Shown here: positions 1 to 16,464 of the stretch, in pieces
Numbering within the stretch: the stretch's first letter is position 1
Layout of the letters: every line of letters starts with the position of its first letter
Origin: a bacterium
GTDB taxonomy: Bacteria > UBP15 > UBA6099 > JAJRTR01
Assembly (NCBI GenBank): GCA_024278215.1
Contig: JAJRTR010000034.1
Coordinates: 1-16,464 of the forward strand
Length of the DNA stretch: 16,464 nucleotides
Reading direction: 5' to 3'
Notes under the pieces: model-generated
What the model was told of the DNA's origin: nothing
The model's database searches: none
What the model saw: only the letters and a program-made list of their open reading frames with translations
Made by a program: the position numbers and the translations under genes

Positions 1-141
1 AATGGCAAAGCAAAAATACGAGAGAACGAAACCGCACGTAAACGTGGGGACGATAGGACATGTGGATCACGGGAAGACGACGCTGACGAGCGCGATGACG
101 AGAATACTGGCATTGGCGGGACAGGCGGAGTTCATAGAATT
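1..141. repeat. Terminal direct repeat, left copy
   Basis: Bases 1-141 are identical, by direct reading, to bases 16324-16464. The repeat begins one base before the tuf start codon and covers the first 46 codons of EF-Tu. It marks either two identical tuf copies or an assembly loop; see the findings. Confidence 0.97.
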
Positions 142-1207
142 CGACAAGATCGACAAAGCGCCCGAAGAGCGCGAACGCGGGATAACGATAGCGACGGCGC
201 ATGTCGAGTATGAGTCGGAAACGCGGCACTACGCGCACGTGGATTGCCCCGGGCACGCGGACTACATAAAGAACATGATAACGGGAGCGGCGCAGATGGA
301 CGGAGCGATACTGGTAGTGGGCTCCGACGACGGACCGATGCCGCAGACGCGGGAACATATACTGCTGGCGAGGCAGGTGGGAGTGCCGTCGATAGTGGTG
401 TTCATGAACAAGATAGATATGGTGGACGACGAGGAATTGCTGGATCTGGTGGAGATGGAAATGAGGGAACTGCTCTCGAAGTATGAATTTCCGGGCGACG
501 ACACGCCGATAATCAGGGGAAGCGCGCTCAAGGCGCTCGAGAGCGAGAAGTGGGAAAAGGGATCGGACCCGTATGTGGACGCGATCTGGGAGCTGGTGAA
601 GGCGATGGACGACTTCATCCCGATGCCCGAGAGGGACACGGACAAGCCGTTCCTGATGCCGGTGGAAGACGTGTTCAGCATCACGGGGCGCGGGACGGTG
701 GCGACGGGACGAGTCGAGCGCGGAGTGGTGAACATCCAGGAAGAGATGGAGATAGTGGGACTGACGGAAGACACGCGCAAGACGGTGGTGACGGGAGTGG
801 AGATGTTCCGCAAACTGCTGGACCAGGGTCAGGCGGGCGATAATGTGGGGTTGCTGCTGCGCGGAGTGGGCAAAGACGAGATCGAGAGGGGCCAGGTAAT
901 AGCGAAACCCGGATCGATCAAACCGCACAAGAGCTTCGAGGGCCGCGCGTACATACTGCAGAAGGAAGAAGGCGGACGCCACACTCCGTTCTTCAAGGGC
1001 TACCGGCCGCAGTTCTACTTCAGGACGACGGACGTGACGGGAGACATCACGCTGCCCGAGGGAGTGGAAATGGTAATGCCGGGAGACGAAATAGAAATGA
1101 AAGTGGATCTGATAATGCCGATAGCGATGGAAGAGGGACTGCGGTTCGCTATCCGAGAGGGCGGCAGAACAGTCGGCGCCGGCGTCATCACAAAGATCAT
1201 CGAGTGA
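2..1207 (+). CDS. tuf: Elongation factor Tu (EF-Tu), complete copy
   Basis: EF-Tu is the cytoplasmic GTPase that delivers aminoacyl-tRNA to the ribosomal A site. The 401-aa product is close to the usual 394-400 aa. Visible motifs are the P-loop GHVDHGKT (residues 19-26), switch I RGITI (59-63), DCPGH (81-85, with His85 as the catalytic histidine) and NKID (136-139). Beta-barrel domains 2 and 3 follow from about residue 210. Where most EF-Tu read VVAATDGPMPQ or similar, this one reads [11 protein letters not shown]. The ATG at 2 is the only sensible start, but its ribosome-binding site lies outside the window. Codon use is peculiar: before the last 20 codons, 24 of 25 Thr codons are ACG and every Ala codon is GCG or GCA, while the tail uses ACA, GCT and GCC. 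The gene precedes rpmG and tRNA-Trp, the position of tufB in many bacteria. Confidence 0.98.
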
Positions 1208-1229
1208 GAGATAAATTCGGAGATAATCC

Positions 1230-1258
1230 TTGACATAGGTTATCCGATTATATAAAAT
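1230..1258 (+). promoter_or_regulatory. Sigma-70-type promoter for rpmG and downstream genes
   Basis: A perfect -35 box TTGACA (1230-1235) is followed by a 17-nt spacer and TAAAAT (1253-1258), one mismatch from the -10 consensus. An alternative -10, TATAAA at 1251, would give a 15-nt spacer. The expected start is near 1265, giving a short leader before rpmG. It lies just after tuf, so the rpmG-tRNA-secE-nusG block can be transcribed independently of tuf. No other convincing promoter is visible before rpoC ends, so it may also feed the rpl and rpo genes. Confidence 0.75.
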
Positions 1259-1286
1259 GAAGTTTTGACTTCGGGGGTATTTAAGC

Positions 1287-1436
1287 GTGAGAATTCCTGT
1301 GACGATGATTTGTACGGAGTGTAAGAGCAAAAACTATTACACTTCGAAAAACAAGAACAACACGACGGTGAAGCTGGAACTGAAGAAGTATTGCAAGAAG
1401 GAAAGGAAACATACCCTGCACAGGGAAGGCAAGTAA
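1287..1436 (+). CDS. rpmG: Large-subunit ribosomal protein bL33
   Basis: This 49-codon gene encodes bL33, a small basic protein of the 50S subunit. The protein begins MRIPVTMICTECKSKNYYT and ends KHTLHREGK, the classic L33 pattern. It keeps the CxxC pair at Cys9 and Cys12 and has a single Cys36 (YCKKER). A second full CxxC is absent, so a four-cysteine zinc site cannot form from this chain alone. The start is taken as GTG at 1287, preceded by a G-rich site (GGGGG at 1273-1277). GTG 1299 or ATG 1305 would remove conserved N-terminal residues. It lies between tuf and tRNA-Trp, a gene order common in bacteria. Confidence 0.93.
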   Translation: MRIPVTMICTECKSKNYYTSKNKNNTTVKLELKKYCKKERKHTLHREGK

Positions 1437-1491
1437 GCGACCTCTCGAAATGGTAGTTTCATGCCGGGATTATAGCAAAAGAAGATAAGGG

Positions 1492-1520
1492 ACAGCTCCT
1501 TTTCGGAGGGGCTGTTATTT
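1492..1520 (+). terminator. Hairpin after rpmG, possible weak terminator or processing site
   Basis: ACAGCTCCTT (1492-1501) pairs with GAGGGGCTGT (1506-1515), using two G-U pairs, around a TTCG tetraloop (1502-1505). TATTT follows. The stem is stable but the T-tract is interrupted. It could be a partial terminator, or an RNase entry site separating rpmG mRNA from the tRNA-Trp precursor that starts 16 nt after the stem. Confidence 0.5.
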
Positions 1521-1530
1521 GCGAAAGAGA

Positions 1531-1604
1531 AGGCCTGTAGCTCCAACTGGCAGAGCACCGGACTCCAAATCCGGGGGTTGCAGGTTCGAATCCTGCCAGG
1601 CCTG
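1531..1604 (+). tRNA. trnW: tRNA-Trp (anticodon CCA)
   Basis: A complete cloverleaf can be drawn. The acceptor AGGCCTG (1531-1537) pairs with CAGGCCT (1597-1603), with discriminator G1604. The D stem is GCTC/GAGC (1540-1543 and 1553-1556). The anticodon stem is CCGGA/TCCGG (1558-1562 and 1570-1574), with loop CTCCAAA and anticodon CCA at 1565-1567. The T arm is GCAGG-TTCGAAT-CCTGC (1580-1596). The 3' CCA is not encoded and must be added by the CCA-adding enzyme. It reads UGG and sits directly before secE, the conserved bacterial position. Because it is co-transcribed with secE-nusG, it must be cut from a polycistronic RNA. Confidence 0.98.
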
Positions 1605-1625
1605 TGTAAGGTACTGAAGGCGAGA

Positions 1626-1651
1626 GCCGGCCCGGAGCGCCGGAGCCCGGC
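1626..1651 (+). other. GC-rich hairpin between tRNA-Trp and secE
   Basis: GCCGG (1626-1630) pairs with CCGGC (1647-1651). An inner CCGG (1632-1635) pairs with CCGG (1640-1643) around AGCG. The stem includes part of the GGAG at 1642-1645 that would serve a start at 1655. It has no T-tract, so it is not a terminator. It may mark the 3' processing point of the tRNA or limit secE translation. Confidence 0.45.
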
Positions 1652-1672
1652 GAAATGGGACGCGAGGACGAA

Positions 1673-1903
1673 ATGGCGAAGCAAAAGCAGAAAAGCAAGG
1701 AGAAGGAGACGAAGAATTACCTTGTTCTTGCCAGGACATTTCTTGAAGAAGTGGCGGCGGAAGCTAAGAAAGTTGTGTGGCCGAGCAGGGAGAGCCTGAT
1801 ACAGTCTTCTCTCACAGTACTCGCCGCAATGGTGATTCTGACGATATTCATGGCGGCGGCAGATTTTGTTTGGACTGAGGTAATTAGTTTAATCAGCGTT
1901 TAA
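1673..1903 (+). CDS. secE: Preprotein translocase subunit SecE
   Basis: SecE is the small essential membrane subunit that clamps SecY in the SecYEG protein-export channel. The 76-aa product has a basic, charged N-terminus, the conserved amphipathic segment with KVVWPSRE (residues 33-40) and one hydrophobic helix at about residues 46-66. This is the short single-span form found in most bacteria outside the gamma-proteobacteria. The start is chosen at ATG 1673, with GAGG five bases upstream. ATG at 1655 would add MGREDE, but its GGAG site is buried in the 1626-1651 hairpin. Either start is possible. The gene lies between tRNA-Trp and nusG, as in most bacteria. Confidence 0.93.
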   Translation: MAKQKQKSKEKETKNYLVLARTFLEEVAAEAKKVVWPSRESLIQSSLTVLAAMVILTIFMAAADFVWTEVISLISV

Positions 1904-1926
1904 AATCACGTAGTTTGGGGTCGATT

Positions 1927-2451
1927 ATGGCGAGCAGATGGTACGTTGTACACACATACTCAGGACACGAGAACAAGGTGAAGTTGAGTCTCGAGAGGCA
2001 GGTCGAGGCTCATGCCTTCGAGGATAAAATCGAGCAGATTCTGGTGCCCACCGAAGAGCGGGTAGAGATAAAAGGCACGCAGAGGAAGGTAGTAGAGAAA
2101 AAGATATTTAAAGGTTACATTTTTATAAAAATGGACCTTACGGATGAAACCTGGTATATGGTCAGGAATACAGCCGGAGTGACGGGTTTTATCGGGGACG
2201 GGAGCCGGCCCACCCCGCTATCTGAAAACGAAGTAAACTTCATCCTCAAGAGGATGGGGCTCGAAGCGCCGCGGATAACGGTGAACTTCGATGAAGGAGA
2301 AGGTGTGAGAGTCCTCTTCGGACCTTTCGCCGACTATTCAGGTATAGTGAAGGAAGTGGACCTGAACCGGGAGAAGGTCGTAGTGCTGCTGTCTCTCTTC
2401 GGACGTGATACCCCAGTGGAGTTGGAATTCGACCAGGTAGAAAAAATATAG
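1927..2451 (+). CDS. nusG: Transcription termination/antitermination factor NusG
   Basis: NusG binds the RNA polymerase clamp and, through its C-terminal domain, ribosomal protein S10 or Rho, linking transcription to translation or termination. The 174-aa product has the NGN domain (about residues 1-115; starts MASRWYVVHTYSGHENKV) and a C-terminal KOW domain (about 124-174). The KOW motif is GEGVRVLFGPFADYSG, followed by LFGRDTPVEL. Phe158 is equivalent to the S10/Rho-contacting Phe165 of E. coli. No extra domain II insertion is present. ATG 1927 is preferred, with GGGG six bases upstream. An in-frame TTG at 1915 would add four residues but lacks a suitable ribosome site. Confidence 0.97.
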   Translation: MASRWYVVHTYSGHENKVKLSLERQVEAHAFEDKIEQILVPTEERVEIKGTQRKVVEKKIFKGYIFIKMDLTDETWYMVRNTAGVTGFIGDGSRPTPLSENEVNFILKRMGLEAPRITVNFDEGEGVRVLFGPFADYSGIVKEVDLNREKVVVLLSLFGRDTPVELEFDQVEKI

Positions 2452-2462
2452 GGAAAAGAAAC

Positions 2463-2498
2463 GCCGCACATATCGAGGTGCATAGGTGTGTGCGCGGC
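2463..2498 (+). promoter_or_regulatory. Bulged hairpin before rplK, candidate L1 autoregulatory site
   Basis: GCCGC (2463-2467) pairs with GCGGC (2494-2498). ACATAT (2468-2473) pairs with GTGTGT (2486-2491), using two G-U pairs. A GC bulge (2492-2493) separates the helices, and the loop is 12 nt. In E. coli, L1 represses the rplK-rplA message by binding a leader structure of two helices with an asymmetric internal loop. Location and shape fit loosely, but no diagnostic L1 motif was verified. Confidence 0.25.
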
Positions 2499-2547
2499 AT
2501 AAGGTGCGCAAAACCGGTAGCATGTTGTTGAAAGGAAGATAAAGAAA

Positions 2548-2973
2548 ATGGCGAAGAAAGTAATAGGAATGATCAAGTTGCAACTGCCCGCCGGGCAGGG
2601 CAACCCCGCGCCCCCTGTGGGGCCGGCGCTGGGCCAGCACGGTGTAAATATAATGGAGTTCTGCAAGGCATATAACGAACGCACAAAGGAAAAGGGCGGG
2701 CAGATCATTCCCGTGGAAATAACTGTCTTCGCGGACAGAAGTTTCAAGTTCATTACTAAGACACCGCCTGCTTCCGATCTGATAAAAAAGGAACTTAAAA
2801 TTGACAAAGGGTCTACCGACCCGTCCCACATCGTCGCCGGTAAGATCAACAGGGAAAGCCTGAAGAAGATAGCCGAAGTGAAGATGCAGGACCTGAACGC
2901 CATAGATATAGAAGGCGCAATGAAGATCATCGCGGGCACAGCCAGGAGCATGGGGCTGGAAGTTGTAGAATAG
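2548..2973 (+). CDS. rplK: Large-subunit ribosomal protein uL11
   Basis: uL11 sits at the base of the factor-binding stalk on 23S rRNA and takes part in EF-G/EF-Tu function and the RelA stringent response. The 141-aa product is standard length. The N-terminal domain contains [20 protein letters not shown], with Pro22/Pro23 in the hinge targeted by thiopeptides. The rRNA-binding C-terminal domain ends [18 protein letters not shown] lies upstream of ATG 2548 at suitable spacing. It is followed 48 nt later by rplA, as in the classical L11 operon. Confidence 0.98.
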
Positions 2974-3021
2974 TATATTATCTGAAAAGACGCAGCATAG
3001 CCGGCAAAAGGAGAAGCAGAC

Positions 3022-3729
3022 GTGGCAAGGTTATCGAAAAAAATGAAGCAGCGCTGGGAAAGTTTACCCGGAAAAGAACATTATACGGCTCCGGAAGCGT
3101 TTGACGCGCTGAAAGGTTCATGCAGCGCCGCACCGTTGAAATTTGACGAAACGGTAGAAGCATATTTTCGACTTGGTATCGACCCGAAAAAGGCTGAACA
3201 GCAGCTCAGGGGAACATTCGTGCTGCCGCACGGGACGGGAAAAACGCCGCGGATACTGGTCTTTGCAACAGGAGACCTGGCGGAAGAAGCGAAAGAGGCC
3301 GGCGCCGACCATGTGGGAGGCGAAGAACTCGCCGAGAAGATACAGAAGGAAGGCTGGCTGGACTTCGACATAGCGATAGCGAGTCCTGACATGATGAGGG
3401 TATGCGGAAAGCTGGGCAAAGTGCTCGGGCCGCGCGGCCTCATGCCGAACCCGAAAAGCGGAACAGTGACAAAGAATATAAAGGATACAGTAGACGAGTT
3501 TAAAAAAGGCAAAGTCGAATACAGAAACGACAAGTATGGAATCATCGCGGTTCCCATTGGCAAGGTATCGTTCGATTCGCAGCAGCTTGTCGAAAACTTC
3601 ATGGCGCTATACCGCACGGTGGTCAAAGCGAGACCGTCCGCGGCCAAAGGCCAGTATATTAAATCAATAGCTATATCGTCGACAATGGGGGCCTCGCTGA
3701 AAATCGAGCCGGCTTCACTTCTCAAATAA
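3022..3729 (+). CDS. rplA: Large-subunit ribosomal protein uL1
   Basis: uL1 forms the mobile L1 stalk that handles E-site tRNA, and in many bacteria it represses its own operon by binding the rplK leader. The 235-aa protein matches the family's usual length of about 230. The signature [15 protein letters not shown] is at residues 135-149. The start is GTG at 3022, with AAGGAG eight bases upstream (3008-3013). The protein ends with the usual [10 protein letters not shown]-like strand. Nothing unusual is seen. Confidence 0.98.
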
Positions 3730-3749
3730 CAGGAATAACAGAATGAGCG

Positions 3750-3762
3750 GCCCGTAGCGGGC
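3750..3762 (+). other. Short hairpin in the rplA-rplJ gap
   Basis: GCCCG-TAG-CGGGC forms a perfect five-base-pair stem with a three-base loop. It lies about 9 nt before the AGGAG of rplJ. The gap is only 57 nt, much shorter than the usual L10 leader, so this is at most a reduced regulatory hairpin. Confidence 0.35.
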
Positions 3763-3786
3763 GGGAAAAAAGGAGCGTGATTGTCC

Positions 3787-4323
3787 ATGCCGTTGACACT
3801 GACGGAAAAGAAGGAACATCTCGAAGAGATCAAAGCAAAGATCGATGAAAATGATCTTATACTTTTCACGGACCCCATCGGGCTTGACGTGGCTATGGTC
3901 ACAGACCTGAGAAATAAACTGCGGGAACAGGGTGTGGGGCTGAAAATATATAAGAACACGCTTATCGGAAGAGCCATCGAGGAATCGGGGCAGGAAAGCC
4001 TGAAGCCGCTGAAGGACCATCTTACAGGCCCGACGGCGATAGCGTTTACGAACGAAGACCCGATAGTCGCGACCAAAGTGATAGTGGATTTTGCCAGAGC
4101 AAACAACAATCTCACACTTAAGGCCGGAACATGCGAAGGCGAATTCTGGGATGTGAACAAGATGGAGGAATACTCCAAACTCGGTTCCAAATCGGCAATA
4201 TACGCGAAGCTGGTCGGCGCACTCTACGGTCCGATATCGAAGTTGATATATGTACTGGGTGGTCCGGGCAGCGAGCTTGTGGGCACATTGAAATCTATAG
4301 TCGAAAAAGATGAAAAAAAATAG
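3787..4323 (+). CDS. rplJ: Large-subunit ribosomal protein uL10
   Basis: uL10 anchors the L7/L12 dimers to the 50S stalk and, as the L10-L12 complex, commonly represses its own mRNA. The 178-aa product has the N-terminal rRNA-binding domain with the LTEKKEHLEEIKAKI helix and NTLIGRAIEESGQ, then LTGPTAIAFTNEDP. It ends in a C-terminal helix carrying L12-binding segments (about residues 135-178). ATG 3787 is taken as the start, with AGGAG (3771-3775) 11 nt upstream. The TTG at 3781 is only 5 nt from AGGAG and would add Met-Ser, so the true start is uncertain by two codons. rplL follows after 29 nt. Confidence 0.97.
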   Translation: MPLTLTEKKEHLEEIKAKIDENDLILFTDPIGLDVAMVTDLRNKLREQGVGLKIYKNTLIGRAIEESGQESLKPLKDHLTGPTAIAFTNEDPIVATKVIVDFARANNNLTLKAGTCEGEFWDVNKMEEYSKLGSKSAIYAKLVGALYGPISKLIYVLGGPGSELVGTLKSIVEKDEKK

Positions 4324-4352
4324 ATACTCGAAAATACAGGAGGTGAAATGAG

Positions 4353-4730
4353 ATGGATGTACAGCAGGTATTTGACGAAATCAAGACAGCGACAATGGCA
4401 GAGGTAGGCGAACTGGCCGAGAAACTGCAGGATGAATTCGGAGTGTCGCCGATGGCGGCTATGCCGGCCGGAGGCATGATGCCGGCGGCAGGAGCAGAGG
4501 CGGCGGTCGAGGAAGAAAAGACGGAATTCGACGTTGTCATTACCGCAGTAGGCGAAAAGAAGATTCCGGTTATCAAGGCAGTCCGCGAGATAACGGACCT
4601 CGGACTTAAAGAGGCGAAAGCACTCGTGGATTCCGCACCAGCAGCAGTAAAGGAAGGTATCGCCAAAGAAGATGCCGAGAAATACAAGGAAAAGCTGGAA
4701 GAAGCGGGAGCAACCGTAGAATTAAAGTAA
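4353..4730 (+). CDS. rplL: Large-subunit ribosomal protein bL12 (L7/L12)
   Basis: bL12 is the multi-copy stalk protein that recruits and stimulates EF-Tu, EF-G and the other translational GTPases. The 125-aa product has the dimerising N-terminal helices (residues 1-33), a Met/Ala/Gly/Pro-rich hinge (about 34-54, with [14 protein letters not shown]) and the factor-binding C-terminal domain starting EKTEFDVVI and ending GATVELK. The ATG at 4353 follows CAGGAGGTG at ideal spacing. An ATG at 4348 is out of frame and would not encode L12. Two terminator-like hairpins lie immediately downstream. Confidence 0.98.
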
Positions 4731-4749
4731 GAGCGCACAGAAAAATGAT

Positions 4750-4785
4750 GAGGAGGCCGGCATAATATGGCGGACCTCCTCTTTT
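4750..4785 (+). terminator. Intrinsic terminator/attenuator after rplL
   Basis: GAGGAGG (4750-4756) pairs with CCTCCTC (4775-4781), with further CCG/CGG pairing inside, followed by TTTT (4782-4785). It starts 19 nt after the rplL stop. E. coli has a partial terminator at this same place, lowering rpoBC transcription relative to ribosomal protein genes. The short T-tract suits partial termination. Confidence 0.8.
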
Positions 4786-4809
4786 GCGACCCAAAGTTAA
4801 GTCCATCGG

Positions 4810-4862
4810 CCCCGGAGTTACAAGCGGGGTGATGTTTTGATGTTTGCAGATGCCGCTTTTTT
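4810..4862 (+). promoter_or_regulatory. Second terminator-like hairpin with overlapping alternative stem before rpoB
   Basis: AAGCGG (4822-4827) pairs with CCGCTT (4853-4858) across a 25-nt loop and is followed by four more T residues, making a possible terminator. CGGGG (4825-4829), overlapping its left arm, can instead pair with CCCCG (4810-4814). The two stems exclude each other, the layout of an attenuator with an antiterminator. No ligand or leader peptide is evident. Confidence 0.4.
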
Positions 4863-4910
4863 CCCATTTGTAAGACCGGCGGCTAAAACCCTACTTTTGA
4901 GGTGTTGTAA

Positions 4911-7900
4911 ATGGCAATTCTCCAGGGTAAAAAACCTTTTAAAGGGAAAAATTACACCGAATACAATTTCGGCAAACTCGTGTCTCCAATCGATCTGCCG
5001 GACCTGATAGAAATCCAGACACAATCGTTTAAATGGCTGAAAGATAAAGGTCTGATAGACCTTTTCAGGAGCATCTCGCCTATAGAATCAGTTGTGTCCA
5101 CTGCCGATGAGGGCCTGATACTTGAATTCCAGGACATCATGTTCGACGAACCAAAGTATCCGCCCGAAGAATGCAAGCATCGGGAGAAAACGTACGAGGC
5201 GGGTTTCCGTGTTAAAGCACGGCTCATCAACCGGAAGACCGGCGAGATAAAGGAACAGGAAGTCTATCTCTGCGAATTCCCGCTGATGACGGATTACGGG
5301 ACATTCGTGTTCAACGGTGCGGAGCGTGTTGTGCTGAGCCAGTTGATCCGCTCGCCCGGTGTCTATTTCGCGGCTCCCAAGGAAGTCACGGGCATCAACT
5401 TCTTCACAGGAAAGATCATACCAAACAGGGGCGCGTGGGTAGAGTTCGAATTCGACATCAAGGGCCAGGCGTTCATCAGGATCGACAAAACAAGAAAGAT
5501 TCCCATCACCACATTTCTTCGGGCGATAGGCTTCGGCTTCGACATAAAGAAGCGGAGAGTATTTCTCGAGGACAACATTACCATTACAGACCCGCTTCCC
5601 GAAAAACTTGTCGGTTTTATACTTGCGGAAGACCTCAAAGACCCGGACAAAGGGAAAGTGATCTTCAAAAAAGGGATAAAAATCGATAAGGAAACAGCCG
5701 CGCAGATCGCCGGCCTGAAACTCAAGAAGGTCCAGATCACGGAGCCATGCAGGGACATGTACATGGAAGACTCCATCCTGAACGTGCTCGAGAAGGAACA
5801 AACGATCACTCGCGATCAGGCGCTGCTGGACATTTATAAAAAATTGCGGCCTGGGGACATCCCCACCGTGGACCACGCGGAAAGACTGCTCGACAGCAGA
5901 TTCTTCCTGCCTCACAAGTATGATCTGTCTCCGGTCGGAAGATACAAAATCAATGAAAAACTGGCACTTGAGATAGACGAGGAAAGGCTCGCACTTACCA
6001 GGCAGGATTTCATCGAGAGCATCCGCTATCTACTCGCGCTGCGCCTGAAGGGCAAGCGGAACATGGCGCAGGAGCGGTATTTCGGTGAAGAAATACTTAG
6101 TGAAGGCGAACAGAAGTTCTACAAGGAATTCTGCAAAATCTATGGTGGCGAACCGACATCGGACGACATCGACCACCTGGGCAACCGGCGTGTCAGGTGC
6201 GTCGGCGAATTGCTTCTTAACAGGCTTCGCGGCGCGCTGGGTATGATGCAGAAAACGATTACAGACAGGATGATCCAGTATGACTCGATGATAGCGACGC
6301 CGCAGTCGCTGATAAATCCGCGACCGCTTATCGCTGCGATAAACGAGTTCTTCGGCAGCAGTCCTCTCTCGCAATTCATGGACCAGACCAACCCGCTGAG
6401 CGCACTTACACATAAAAGAAAACTTAGTGCGCTGGGGCCGGGCGGACTTACCCGCGAGCGAGCGGGATTCGAAGTGCGCGACGTACACCACTCCCACTAT
6501 GGCCGCATCTGCCCTATCGAATCTCCTGAAGGCCCCAACATCGGCCTCATCGGATCACTGGCGACTTATGGGAAGGTGGACAAATTCGGATTCCTGCTTA
6601 CACCCTACAGAAAAGTAAAAAACGGTCGGGTGCTGAACGAAGTGGAATATCTCAGCGCGGCCCAGGAAGACCGTTACGCTGTGGCCCAGGCCAATGCGCC
6701 TCTGGACAGCAAGGGCAGGTTCACAAAAGAACTTGTTGCAGTAAGGAAACGCGACCGCATCGACAGGGTGCCGCCGAAACAGGTAAACTATATGGATGTG
6801 AGCCCGAAACAGCTGGTGTCCATAACCACGTCGATGATACCGTTCCTCGAACACGACGATGCCAACAGAGCCCTGATGGGATCGAACATGCAGCGCCAGG
6901 CGATTCCGCTGATACGCTCCGACGCGCCGCTCGTGTGTACCGGGATCGAACGAAAAGTCGCCGTCGACGCGGACGCGGTTGTAACAGCGAAAAGAGCCGG
7001 GACCATCTCTTATGTCGACAGCCGCAGAATAGTGATAAAAGTAGCGGGCAAGCGGGAAGAAGATGAATACACACTGATCAAATTCTCGCGTTCCAACCAG
7101 AGTACATGTGTAAACTTCAAGCCGACGGTGCTGCCCGGCGAAGAAGTAAAAGCCGGCGACCCGATAGCCGACGGCCCCAACTGCGACAATGGAAGGCTGG
7201 CGCTCGGCAGGAACCTTCTTGTCGCATTCATGCCCTGGGAAGGTTACAACTTCGAGGACGCCATTGTAGTAAGCGAAAAACTGCTGAAGAACGATGCTTT
7301 AACGTCCGTATATCTTGAAAAGTACGAATGTGAAGCAAGAGAGACAAAACTCGGGCCGGAAGAGATAACACGCGACATCCCGAACGTCAACGAAGAAGTC
7401 CTGGAAAACCTGGACGAGAACGCAATTATAAAAATAGGAACACATGTCAAGGCCGGTGATGTGCTTATCGGAAAAGTCATCCCGAAGGGAGAAACAGAAC
7501 CGACGGCGGAAGAGCGGCTCTTGCGCGCGATTTTCGGAGAAAAAGCGCGTGACGTCCGCAACACCTCGCTCAAGGTTCCCCACGGCGGCAAAGGTGTCGT
7601 CATCGGAGTGACCGACTTCAACAGGGAAGCCGGCGACGATTTCGCGCCCGGTAAAAATCGGAGTGTGCGTGTGTTCGTCGCGCAGAAACGGCGTATCATG
7701 GTAGGCGACAAGATGGCAGGCCGGCACGGGAATAAAGGTGTTATCTCGAAGATAGTTCCTGAAGAAGATATGCCTTTCCTCGAAGACGGCACACCCGTGG
7801 ACATCGTGCTCAATCCGCTCGGCGTCCCGTCCCGCATGAACATCGGGCAGGTTCTTGAAACGCACCTTGGATGGATCGCGAAAAAGAACAACACGCATTT

Positions 7901-8474
7901 CGCCACCCCGATATTCGAGGGAATAATTGAAGATGAGATGCAGGAACTCATGGAGGAATCCGGCCTTCCGCCAGATGGGAAAGTAACGCTATATGATGGA
8001 AAAACCGGCGAGGCATTCGACCAGAAGGTGACGATAGGCCAGATATATATGCTTAAACTCAACCACATGGTCGAAGATAAGATGCACGCAAGGTCCACCG
8101 GTTCTTATGCGCTGGTAACACAGCAGCCACTGGGCGGAAAAGCACAGTTCGGCGGACAGAGATTCGGTGAAATGGAAGTCTGGGCGCTGGAGGCCTACGG
8201 CGCGGCAGTCACACTTCAGGAACTACTTACAATCAAATCCGACGACATCACCGGACGTGTGAAAACATACGAGTCCATCGTAAAGAGAGAGAATATCCAG
8301 AAACCCGGTATTCCCGAATCGTTCAACGTACTCGTGAAAGAACTCCAGGCGCTGGCGCTGGACGTCCAGTTGCTCACAGGAAGCGGTCGCAAAATTGCGC
8401 AGGCTTCGGAAGACGACGCGGTAGGCTCCATACTGCTGGATGATCTTGGTATCCAGAGCCCGTCTTATACATAA
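4911..8474 (+). CDS. rpoB: DNA-directed RNA polymerase subunit beta
   Basis: RpoB is the beta subunit of the catalytic RNA polymerase core. The 1187-aa length is near the B. subtilis type (about 1193) and shorter than E. coli (1342). It has only a modest insertion in the lobe equivalent to E. coli SI1 and none at SI2. Landmarks are the rifampicin cluster [13 protein letters not shown]...[15 protein letters not shown] (about residues 483-513), [10 protein letters not shown]-like [27 protein letters not shown] (932-943) and the C-terminal clamp-anchoring [21 protein letters not shown] (from 1074). Residue 504 is Lys, where E. coli has Arg529. The ATG at 4911 follows GAGGTG at suitable spacing. 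It is separated from rplL by 180 nt of attenuator-like sequence, and rpoC follows after 57 nt. Confidence 0.99.
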
Positions 8475-8481
8475 TAGCGGT

Positions 8482-8499
8482 CGGGAAATATAATTCCCG
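8482..8499 (+). other. Hairpin in the rpoB-rpoC gap
   Basis: CGGGAA (8482-8487) and TTCCCG (8494-8499) form a six-base-pair stem around ATATAA. No T-tract follows, so it is not a terminator. It may stabilise or punctuate the rpoB-rpoC message. Confidence 0.4.
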
Positions 8500-8531
8500 G
8501 ACGATCAAACATGCATTGAGGAGTGTTCATT

Positions 8532-13070
<4,539 letters not shown>

Positions 13071-13083
13071 AGAAAACGATAAA

Positions 13084-13145
13084 ATCAAAAAAAACTGAAA
13101 TAGTTTATTTTTGATATTGACATGTTATAGGCGATTGTTTATGAT
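13084..13145 (+). promoter_or_regulatory. Strong promoter with AT-rich upstream element for the str operon
   Basis: TTGACA (13117-13122), a 17-nt spacer and TATGAT (13140-13145) make a near-perfect sigma-70-type promoter. Transcription should begin near 13152, about 50 nt before rpsL. The bases directly upstream (13084-13115) are almost all A/T. They form an imperfect inverted repeat, ATCAAAAAAAACT and AGTTTATTTTTGAT, around a GAAAT core. This is like an UP element for the alpha-subunit C-terminal domain, or an AT-only terminator-like hairpin ending rpoC. Confidence 0.85.
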
Positions 13146-13201
13146 ATTCATTTGTGCGCAGTGACGGCACATATTTATTAAGGTGAGCAAAGGAGGCTTC
13201 G

Positions 13202-13588
13202 ATGCCGACCATAAATCAACTGGTCAGAAAGAAGCGCAGTCCGCAGAAGAAAAAATCGAAATCCATGGCCCTGCAGAAGAATCCGCAGAGGCGCGGAGTT
13301 TGTACCAGAGTATGGACTATAACACCGAAGAAACCCAATTCTGCGTTGCGCAAAGTAGCTCGCATACGCCTTTCAAACGGCATAGAGGTTACAGCATATA
13401 TACCGGGTGTGGGACACAATCTTCAGGAGCACTCGATCGTGCTCATCAGGGGCGGTCGTGTTAAAGACCTTCCCGGTGTCAGATACCACGTAGTAAGGGG
13501 AGTGCTCGACACAGCCGGTACCGAAAACAGGAAGCAAAGCCGGTCAAAGTATGGAACGAGACGTCCGAAAAAGACAGCGGGCGGATAA
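13202..13588 (+). CDS. rpsL: Small-subunit ribosomal protein uS12
   Basis: uS12 lies in the decoding centre of the 30S subunit and governs accuracy and streptomycin response. The 128-aa product begins [12 protein letters not shown] and contains [12 protein letters not shown] (residues 41-52) and [13 protein letters not shown] (84-96). Lys43/Lys44 and Lys88, where streptomycin-resistance changes occur in E. coli and Mycobacterium, are the sensitive type. Asp89, the beta-methylthiolation site in other bacteria, is present. AAAGGAGG (13189-13196) gives the strongest ribosome-binding site in the window. This is the first gene of the str operon, and a strong promoter lies just upstream. Confidence 0.98.
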
Positions 13589-13649
13589 TAATACCATAAG
13601 TATTTCCCCACGCGCCTGAACAGCGAACGAGGGAATCGAGGGACGAAAG

Positions 13650-14120
13650 ATGCCAAGAAGAAAATATAAAAAAGTAAAAAGGAATATCGCCGATCCGAAA
13701 TATGGTGATCCGGTAATAGGCTCGACAATACATTGCATCCTGAAAAGAGGCAAAAAGAGCCTCGCCGAAAGGCTTATGTATCAGACGCTTGATATTGTCG
13801 GAGAAAAAACAGGCAAAGATTCGCTCGAAGTCTATCAACAGGCAATTAAGAATGTATCGCCATCGGTGCAGGTAAAATCGCGCCGTGTCGGAGGCGCCAC
13901 GTACCAGGTTCCTCTCGAGATATCCGGTGATAGAAGACAGGCGCTCGGCATAACCTGGCTGCTCGACTTCGCGAGAGCGCGCACGGGAGCGAGCTTCCCC
14001 GAGCGGTTCGCCGAAGAAATTATCGAAGCTTCGGAAAACAGGGGCGGCGCAATCAAGAAGAAGATCGATACTCATAAGATGGCGGAGGCTAACAAGGCTT
14101 TTTCGCACTACAGGTTCTAA
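13650..14120 (+). CDS. rpsG: Small-subunit ribosomal protein uS7
   Basis: uS7 nucleates assembly of the 30S head and lines the mRNA/tRNA exit region. The 156-aa product is typical. It contains the family signature [22 protein letters not shown], and a C-terminal [19 protein letters not shown] lies upstream of ATG 13650. The rpsL-rpsG gap is 61 nt, about where S7 binds its own message in E. coli. A weak TTCCC/GGGAA pairing (13604-13608 with 13631-13635) is visible there, but it is too weak to call a regulatory site. Confidence 0.98.
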
Positions 14121-14140
14121 AAGACCAGGATGTTGAGACC

Positions 14141-14175
14141 CCCGCGTTTCACCAATCATGCGAAGCGCGGGTTTT
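14141..14175 (+). terminator. Intrinsic terminator-like hairpin between rpsG and fusA
   Basis: CCCGCGTTTC (14141-14150) pairs with GAAGCGCGGG (14162-14171) over ten base pairs with one T-G wobble and an 11-nt loop. TTTT (14172-14175) follows. It starts 20 nt after the rpsG stop and ends 22 nt before the fusA start, leaving no room for a new promoter. fusA must therefore depend on read-through or on a promoter inside rpsG. Confidence 0.8.
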
Positions 14176-14197
14176 AATGTGTGAAGACGGAAGAGAA

Positions 14198-16270
14198 ATG
14201 AACGAACTGGAACTGAAAAAAACGCGCAATATCGGTCTGGCAGCCCACATAGACGCGGGCAAAACCACCACGACCGAGCGTATCCTGTATTATTCGGGCC
14301 GTGTGCACCGCATCGGTGAAGTCGACGCGGGCACCGCGACTATGGATTGGATGGAACAGGAACAGGAGCGCGGCATCACAATCACTTCCGCCGCCACATA
14401 TTGCGAGTGGAACAACCATTCCATCAATATAATAGACACGCCCGGCCATGTCGATTTCACAGTAGAAGTAGAGCGCTCGATGCGTGTGCTCGACGGGCTC
14501 ATAGTTGTATTCTGCGCCGTCGGCGGTGTCCAGACCCAGAGCGAAACAGTATGGAGACAAGCCGACAAGTACAATATCCCGAGGCTTGCTTTTATCAACA
14601 AGATGGATCGAACAGGAGCGGACTTCTTTCGCGTGGTAGAAAAAATCCGCGAACAGCTTTCGGCAAACCCCGTACCTATCACAATTCCCATCGGCGCAGA
14701 AGAAACATTCGAAGGTCTCGTCGACCTGGTAACAATGGAAAAAGTCACCTACAGAGATGACCTCGGCAACGACATAATAAAAACCCCGGTAGAAGGTGAA
14801 CTGAAAGAAAAGGCTCTGCAACAGCGCTTGAAAATGATCGAAAGACTCGCCGACTACAGCGACGAAATAACCGAAAAGTTCCTTGCCGAAGAAGAGGTCT
14901 CCGAAAAACTCATAAAAGAAACATTAAGAAAAGCCACAATATCCGGCGATATCGTTCCCGTGCTCTGCGGCACATCGCTGAGGAACAAAGGCGTGCAGCC
15001 GCTCATGGATGCCATTTGCGACTACCTGCCGTCACCGCTCGATGTTCCGCCGATCAACGGTGAAGAAGTGAAAACCGGCGAAGCGATACCCTGCAAAGTC
15101 GACGATTCCGAACCACTGGCCGCGCTGGCCTTCAAAATCGCCAACGATCCTTTTGTCGGTTTCATAACATATATAAGGGTATACTCGGGCAGGCTGAAAA
15201 AGAATACGAAAGTCTATAATGTAAACCGTGGGAAAAAAGAGCGTGTCACACGTATCCTCAGAATGCACGCTAACCACCGGGAGGAACTCGACGAACTTAC
15301 CGCGGGCGCTATCGCGGTCGTTGCTGGTCTGAAATTCACAACGACCGGCGATACACTATCATCCGAAAGCAGGAAACTGCTGTTGGAAAACATCACATTC
15401 CCCGAACCGGTTATATCTGTGGCAATCGAGCCGCGCAGCCAGACCGACTTCCAGAAAATGAACGAATCGCTACAGGCGCTGGCCAACGAAGACCCGACAT
15501 TCAAAATGTATTTCGACGAAGATATGGGGCAGACGATAATATCGGGCATGGGTGAACTGCACCTCGAGATAATCATCGACCGCCTGTTGCGCGAATACAA
15601 AGTAAGGGGCAAAGTCGGTCGCCCGATGGTCGCATATAAAGAAGCGATTTCAAAAGTAGTGGTTTCACAGGGCAGCTACATCAGGCAGTCGGGCGGAAAA
15701 GGCCATTTCGCAAAAGTAACACTGGAAATAGGTCCCATGAAACCCGGCGAAGGCTTCAAATTCGACAACAGAGTCTCTCAAAACGAAATTCCGGACGAGT
15801 TCATACCGGCTATCAGGCATAGCATCGAAGAGTCCCTCACGAGCGGGCCGCTCGGCGGATACCCGATTATCGACATAAAGGTCACAGTCGCGGGCGGGCA
15901 GTACCACGAAGAGGATTCGGACGAAACAGCATACAGAATCGCTGCGACAAACGCTTTCAGGGACGGTGTTTCAAAAGCCGGTCCGCTGCTCAAAGAACCG
16001 ATCATGAAGATAGAAGTGGTAACACCCGAATCGCACATGGGTGACATACTACAAGATATAAACGCAAGAAGAGGCAAAATGCTCGACATGAAGCCTTCAC
16101 TCGGCGACACACGTATTCTAAAAGCGCTGGTCCCGCTTTCCGAGCTGTTTGAATATACCACGCATCTGCGTAACAGGTCACAGGGCAAGGCGACATACTC
16201 GATGGAATTCGATCACTACGACGTTGTTCCCGAAAGTGTAACCGACAGGGTGCTCGGGAAGACTGCATAA
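14198..16270 (+). CDS. fusA: Elongation factor G (EF-G)
   Basis: EF-G is the GTPase that drives translocation and, with RRF, ribosome recycling. The 690-aa product is full length. GTP-binding motifs are AHIDAGKT (residues 16-23), RGITI (58-62), DTPGH (80-84) and NKMD (134-137). Domain IV carries RQSGGKGHF and the tip segment [14 protein letters not shown], with the conserved His. Domain V ends the protein. The sequence [22 protein letters not shown] is typical of canonical EF-G. ATG 14198 is chosen: GGAAG lies just upstream, and [17 protein letters not shown] matches the usual length. ATG 14177 would add seven residues and lacks a good ribosome site. The 54-nt gap to tuf has no terminator. 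Confidence 0.98.
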
Positions 16271-16323
16271 AGATATTAACAGGGCACACCGAAGCCCAAA
16301 TCGCTAATTACGGAGGAAAAGGT

Positions 16324-16464
16324 AATGGCAAAGCAAAAATACGAGAGAACGAAACCGCACGTAAACGTGGGGACGATAGGACATGTGGATCACGGGAAGA
16401 CGACGCTGACGAGCGCGATGACGAGAATACTGGCATTGGCGGGACAGGCGGAGTTCATAGAATT
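16324..16464. repeat. Terminal direct repeat, right copy
   Basis: It is identical to bases 1-141 over all 141 positions. The window ends exactly at the repeat end. Confidence 0.97.
16325..16464 (+). CDS. tuf: Elongation factor Tu, 5' fragment of a second copy (cut by window end)
   Basis: The first 46 codons of EF-Tu are present, including GHVDHGKT, and the frame is open to the end of the window. GGAGG (16312-16316) lies eight bases before ATG 16325, a strong site. It follows fusA by 54 nt in the usual rpsL-rpsG-fusA-tuf order, so this is the tufA position. Its DNA is identical to the start of the complete tuf at base 2, so the two may be true duplicate genes or one gene seen twice through an assembly loop. 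Confidence 0.95.

What the first reader, a model, noticed from the sequence alone, without database searches (positions are those of the whole stretch)
1..16464. Identical 141-bp ends: probable assembly loop through duplicate tuf genes
Bases 1-141 equal 16324-16464 exactly. The left end starts just one base before the tuf ATG, which is where two tuf copies with different upstream DNA would first become identical. The length 141 is also the largest default k-mer of the MEGAHIT assembler, whose looped contigs carry a k-long overlap. The simplest reading is a chromosomal segment bounded by tufB (before rpmG) and tufA (after fusA), with the copies collapsed. A naive pipeline could call this contig a complete 16,323-bp circular element, which its gene content makes implausible.
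Basis: partly seen in the sequence, partly recalled or inferred. Interest (0 to 1): 0.6.

Follow-up and report, generated by a model that had tools for sequence, protein, structure and literature searches.

The report
Assembly loop through duplicated tuf genes
The identical ends of this contig are an assembly artefact: a normal stretch of bacterial chromosome lying between two near-identical copies of the gene for elongation factor Tu was cut at both copies and wrongly looks like a small circle.

Summary
Bases 1-141 equal 16324-16464, the border is precisely 141 bp, and it begins one base before the tuf ATG. The window is contig C2 of a 207-contig draft genome. Contig C193 of the same genome carries the same 141 bp preceded by tRNA-Thr-Tyr-Gly-Thr, the classic tufB leader genes. 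Contig C180 starts inside the 3' end of a second tuf and continues into rpsJ, the classic tufA/S10 neighbour. The true order is therefore C193(4 tRNAs)-tufB-rpmG-trnW-secE...rpoBC-rpsLG-fusA-tufA-rpsJ(C180). A same-order relative (ADurb.Bin236) holds exactly this arrangement on one contig, with tuf copies identical over 1,214 bp. A near-identical relative of it, assembled with k141-style contig names, has the same segment cut with exactly 141 shared bp at each end. Other contig ends of the window's genome also share exactly 141 bp. There is no circle and no new element: this is an ordinary short-read assembly artefact at a conserved duplicated gene. The biology (two tuf genes homogenised by gene conversion) is well known. 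It is useful only as a warning for circular-contig pipelines.

The parts
1..141 (+). left copy of the 141-bp overlap: one base before the tuf ATG plus the first 140 bases of tuf
   Evidence: exact border; also at C193:1-141(-)
16324..16464 (+). right copy of the 141-bp overlap: start of tufA after fusA
2..1207 (+). tuf (EF-Tu), collapsed tufA/tufB sequence; its 3' end is that of tufB (continues to rpmG)
   Evidence: TIGR00485 736.8 bits; only full-length copy in the genome
1287..1436 (+). rpmG (ribosomal protein L33)
1531..1604 (+). tRNA-Trp (CCA)
1655..1903 (+). secE
1930..2451 (+). nusG
2548..2973 (+). rplK (L11)
3022..3729 (+). rplA (L1)
3787..4323 (+). rplJ (L10)
4353..4730 (+). rplL (L7/L12)
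4911..8474 (+). rpoB
8538..13070 (+). rpoC (exact start codon uncertain; ORF open from 8523)
13202..13588 (+). rpsL (S12)
13650..14120 (+). rpsG (S7)
14201..16270 (+). fusA (EF-G)

Best explanation
The contig is a linear chromosomal segment from tufB to the start of tufA, and its identical ends are a de Bruijn graph overlap. The two tuf genes are identical from one base before the ATG to nine bases before the end of the ORF, as far as can be seen. At k=141 they therefore collapse into one path with two ways in: fusA, and the tRNA cluster on C193. The assembler kept tuf joined to the rpmG side, because the competing exit (C180, tufA-rpsJ) starts four bases too late to overlap by a full k and so was disconnected. 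It then ended the fusA side with the k-long overlap onto the tuf start, so the contig appears to loop onto itself. Shown: the sequences of all four junctions, the three contigs, and the linear order in a relative. Inferred: that the assembler was MEGAHIT at k=141, and why C180 was disconnected.
For: Exact 141-bp border. The same 141 bp ends C193, preceded by tRNA-Thr(TGT)-Tyr(GTA)-Gly(TCC)-Thr(GGT). C180 begins with tuf 1062-1207, differing at 3 bases near the stop, then rpsJ and further ribosomal protein genes. The relative's contig L009 has 4 tRNAs-tuf-trnW-...-fusA-tuf-rpsJ, with tuf copies identical over 1,214 bp. L008 (contig named k141_1195010; matching G001:C39) shares exactly 141 bp with the other tuf context at both ends, and its partner contig ends C99 and C112 share exactly 141 bp. 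Other contig ends of the window's genome, C11.R/C20.L and C38.R/C41.R, also share exactly 141 bp. The segment from tRNA-Trp to fusA occurs once in the genome, so there is no separate chromosomal copy.
Against: No reads or assembly graph were available. C180 shares 137 rather than 141 bases with the window's tuf before the first difference, which needs the added assumption of a coverage gap or trimming. The assembler's name is not recorded for this genome here.
Confidence: 0.98

Rival explanations
1. A real 16,323-bp circular element (plasmid, excised circle or chromid) carrying rpoBC, fusA and tuf.
For: Perfect terminal overlap, which circularity callers accept.
Against: The gene content is the single genome copy of rpoBC, rpsLG, fusA and others. 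No replication or transfer gene is among the 13 protein genes, which fill the contig. The flanks expected for a chromosomal segment exist on C193 and C180. Relatives carry the segment in the chromosome.
Confidence: 0.005
2. A real tandem duplication or amplification of the tuf-to-fusA segment in the chromosome by recombination between the two directly repeated tuf genes, so that a fusA-tuf-rpmG junction truly exists in some cells.
For: The tuf genes are direct repeats about 16.2 kb apart in the relative L009, a geometry that permits such duplications. Not excluded without read depth.
Against: Not needed to explain the data: the same contig ends appear in a related assembly without a loop.
Confidence: 0.015

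Closest known systems
tufA/tufB duplicate EF-Tu genes (str operon tufA; tRNA-linked tufB)
   Same: Four tRNAs (Thr, Tyr, Gly, Thr) before tufB; fusA-tufA-rpsJ. Copies are nearly identical, as in Salmonella (12 differences, PMC5485169) and under concerted evolution across 29 bacterial orders (PMC6053082).
   Different: Here the two copies lie about 16 kb apart in direct orientation around secE-rpoBC-rpsLG-fusA (order inferred from the contigs and L009). In Salmonella they are 762 kb apart and inverted (PMC5485169).
k-long contig-end overlaps of de Bruijn graph assemblers (MEGAHIT, k=141)
   Same: Exactly 141 shared bases at branching ends in this genome and in a related MAG whose contigs carry k141 names.
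   Different: Nothing material. One competing end (C180) is four bases short of a full overlap.

Membership tests
Collapsed-repeat assembly loop | terminal overlap equals assembler k and begins where two repeat copies first become identical | tested here: met
   141 bp, starting one base before the tuf ATG; C2 right end and C193 end differ at the next base outward
Collapsed-repeat assembly loop | alternative in- and out-edges exist in the same assembly | tested here: met
   C193 (tRNAs-tuf) and C180 (tuf-rpsJ)
Collapsed-repeat assembly loop | about twofold read depth over the collapsed repeat | not testable with these tools
   no reads available
tufA/tufB pair | one copy after fusA and before rpsJ, the other after the tRNA-Thr-Tyr-Gly-Thr cluster | tested here: met
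   in pieces here; contiguous in L009
tufA/tufB pair | near-identity of copies | tested here: inconclusive
   first 140 bases identical and three differences in the last nine bases; bases 142-1061 of the second copy not seen. In L009 identical over 1,214 bp
Circular extrachromosomal element | own replication or maintenance genes, and chromosomal genes present elsewhere | tested here: not met
   only housekeeping genes, single copy

The most novel reading that the evidence does not exclude
Recombination between the two directly repeated tuf genes really produces, in part of the population, a circle or tandem duplication of the rpoBC-rpsLG-fusA segment, so the fusA-tuf-rpmG junction is physically real as well as an assembly product.
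Probability: 0.015. Interest if true: 0.35.

Novelty: not a real feature. Interest (0 to 1): 0.08.

Why it matters
It is a clean worked example of a false circular contig: core chromosomal genes bounded by a conserved duplicated gene, with an overlap equal to the assembler's k. Pipelines that call complete circles from terminal repeats should check for overlap length equal to k and for duplicated housekeeping genes at the ends. It also lets the three contigs be ordered, closing a gap in this draft genome.

Tried and rejected
One overlap of 129 bp (C15.R/C27.L) and 27-bp matches share an apparently dispersed sequence and were not counted as k-mer overlaps. Rfam found only the tRNA in the window. 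A four-term paper search, listing papers with at least three of the terms, returned 42 papers, of which eight were listed; no title or abstract start shown treats false circles from MEGAHIT, and none was read. A stricter six-term search found none. The statement that 141 is MEGAHIT's largest default k therefore rests on general knowledge. A true circle was considered and rejected.

Full report
Observation. The first 141 bases of the window equal the last 141 exactly, and the border is exactly 141 long. The repeat starts one base before the ATG of a complete EF-Tu gene at 2-1207. The second occurrence follows fusA, which ends at 16270. The rest of the contig is rpmG, tRNA-Trp, secE, nusG, rplKAJL, rpoB, rpoC, rpsL, rpsG and fusA, all on the + strand.

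The window is the whole of contig C2 in a 4.55-Mb, 207-contig draft genome. Its tuf matches two other contig ends. C193 begins, on its minus strand, with the same 141 bases, and outward of them the sequence differs from the fusA side at the very next base. Upstream on C193 lie tRNA-Thr(TGT), tRNA-Tyr(GTA), tRNA-Gly(TCC) and tRNA-Thr(GGT). From general knowledge this is the gene order before tufB in Escherichia coli. C180 begins with the last 146 bases of a tuf gene (window 1062-1207), matching the window for 137 bases and then differing at three of the last nine bases of the ORF, and continues into rpsJ and further ribosomal protein genes (only rpsJ was checked against a family model). So this genome has two tuf genes, and the two missing flanks are both present.

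A relative shows the linear order directly. Contig MWCD01000037 (L009, bacterium ADurb.Bin236; rpoB 80% identical; it appears to be genome G003, same order as the window's genome) carries the four tRNAs, tuf, tRNA-Trp, the rplK-rpoBC-rpsLG-fusA segment, a second tuf and rpsJ on one contig. Its two tuf copies are identical over 1,214 bp.

The artefact recurs in a second assembly. L008, contig k141_1195010 of isolate USMO_maxbin.112, comes from an organism very close to L009: 5,623 and 3,774 bases in a row are identical. It starts in the last 141 shared bases of tuf and ends in the first 141 shared bases. Its shared length with the other tuf context in L009 is exactly 141 at each end. In the matching genome G001, the four tuf-bearing contig ends pair up with exactly 141 shared bases each. 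In that assembly the tuf middle is missing from the matches, so no loop appeared. In the window's genome, two further pairs of contig ends among 73 sampled share exactly 141 bases. A k of 141 is thus the working overlap of this assembly.

Why a loop here. C180 is four bases short of a full 141-base overlap with the collapsed tuf. A gap there would leave the tuf path with a single exit, toward rpmG, while still having two entries, fusA and C193. The assembler would then join tuf to rpmG and leave the fusA end overlapping the contig's own start. This step is inference.

A true circle is implausible. The segment from tRNA-Trp to fusA has no second copy in the genome, apart from a distant EF-G paralogue on C93 and short tRNA-like matches, and EF-Tu has only one full-length copy. 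The genes found, which fill the contig, are core transcription, translation and secretion genes with no replication gene among them. A real duplication or excised circle arising by recombination between the directly repeated tuf genes cannot be excluded without reads, but nothing calls for it.

Biology. Near-identical tufA and tufB subject to gene conversion are known in Salmonella (PMC5485169) and as recurrent concerted evolution in 29 bacterial orders (PMC6053082). The identity boundaries seen here, just outside the start codon and just inside the stop codon, fit that. This is not new.

Noticed in passing
G000:C93:10284-12091: A second EF-G-like gene (open frame about 692 aa, 65-73% DNA identity to parts of fusA) lies elsewhere in the genome.
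   Followed up: no
window 1230-1258: Strong sigma-70-like promoter (TTGACA-17-TAAAAT, 11 of 12) between tufB and rpmG, suggesting rpmG-secE-nusG has its own promoter.
   Followed up: partly
L005 976-2007: recA lies divergently from the tRNA-tufB cluster on C193, followed by a gene whose product reads like ribonuclease Y (2338-3906; named by eye, not searched).
   Followed up: no
L005 6945-13229: A 2,094-aa ORF with many repeated segments, looking like a large surface or secreted protein (judged by eye, not searched).
   Followed up: no
G000 contigs C15.R, C27.L, C37.L, C38.R, C41.R: Several contig ends share a sequence containing GAAATTGTTCAGAG, probably a dispersed repeat that breaks the assembly.
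   Followed up: no
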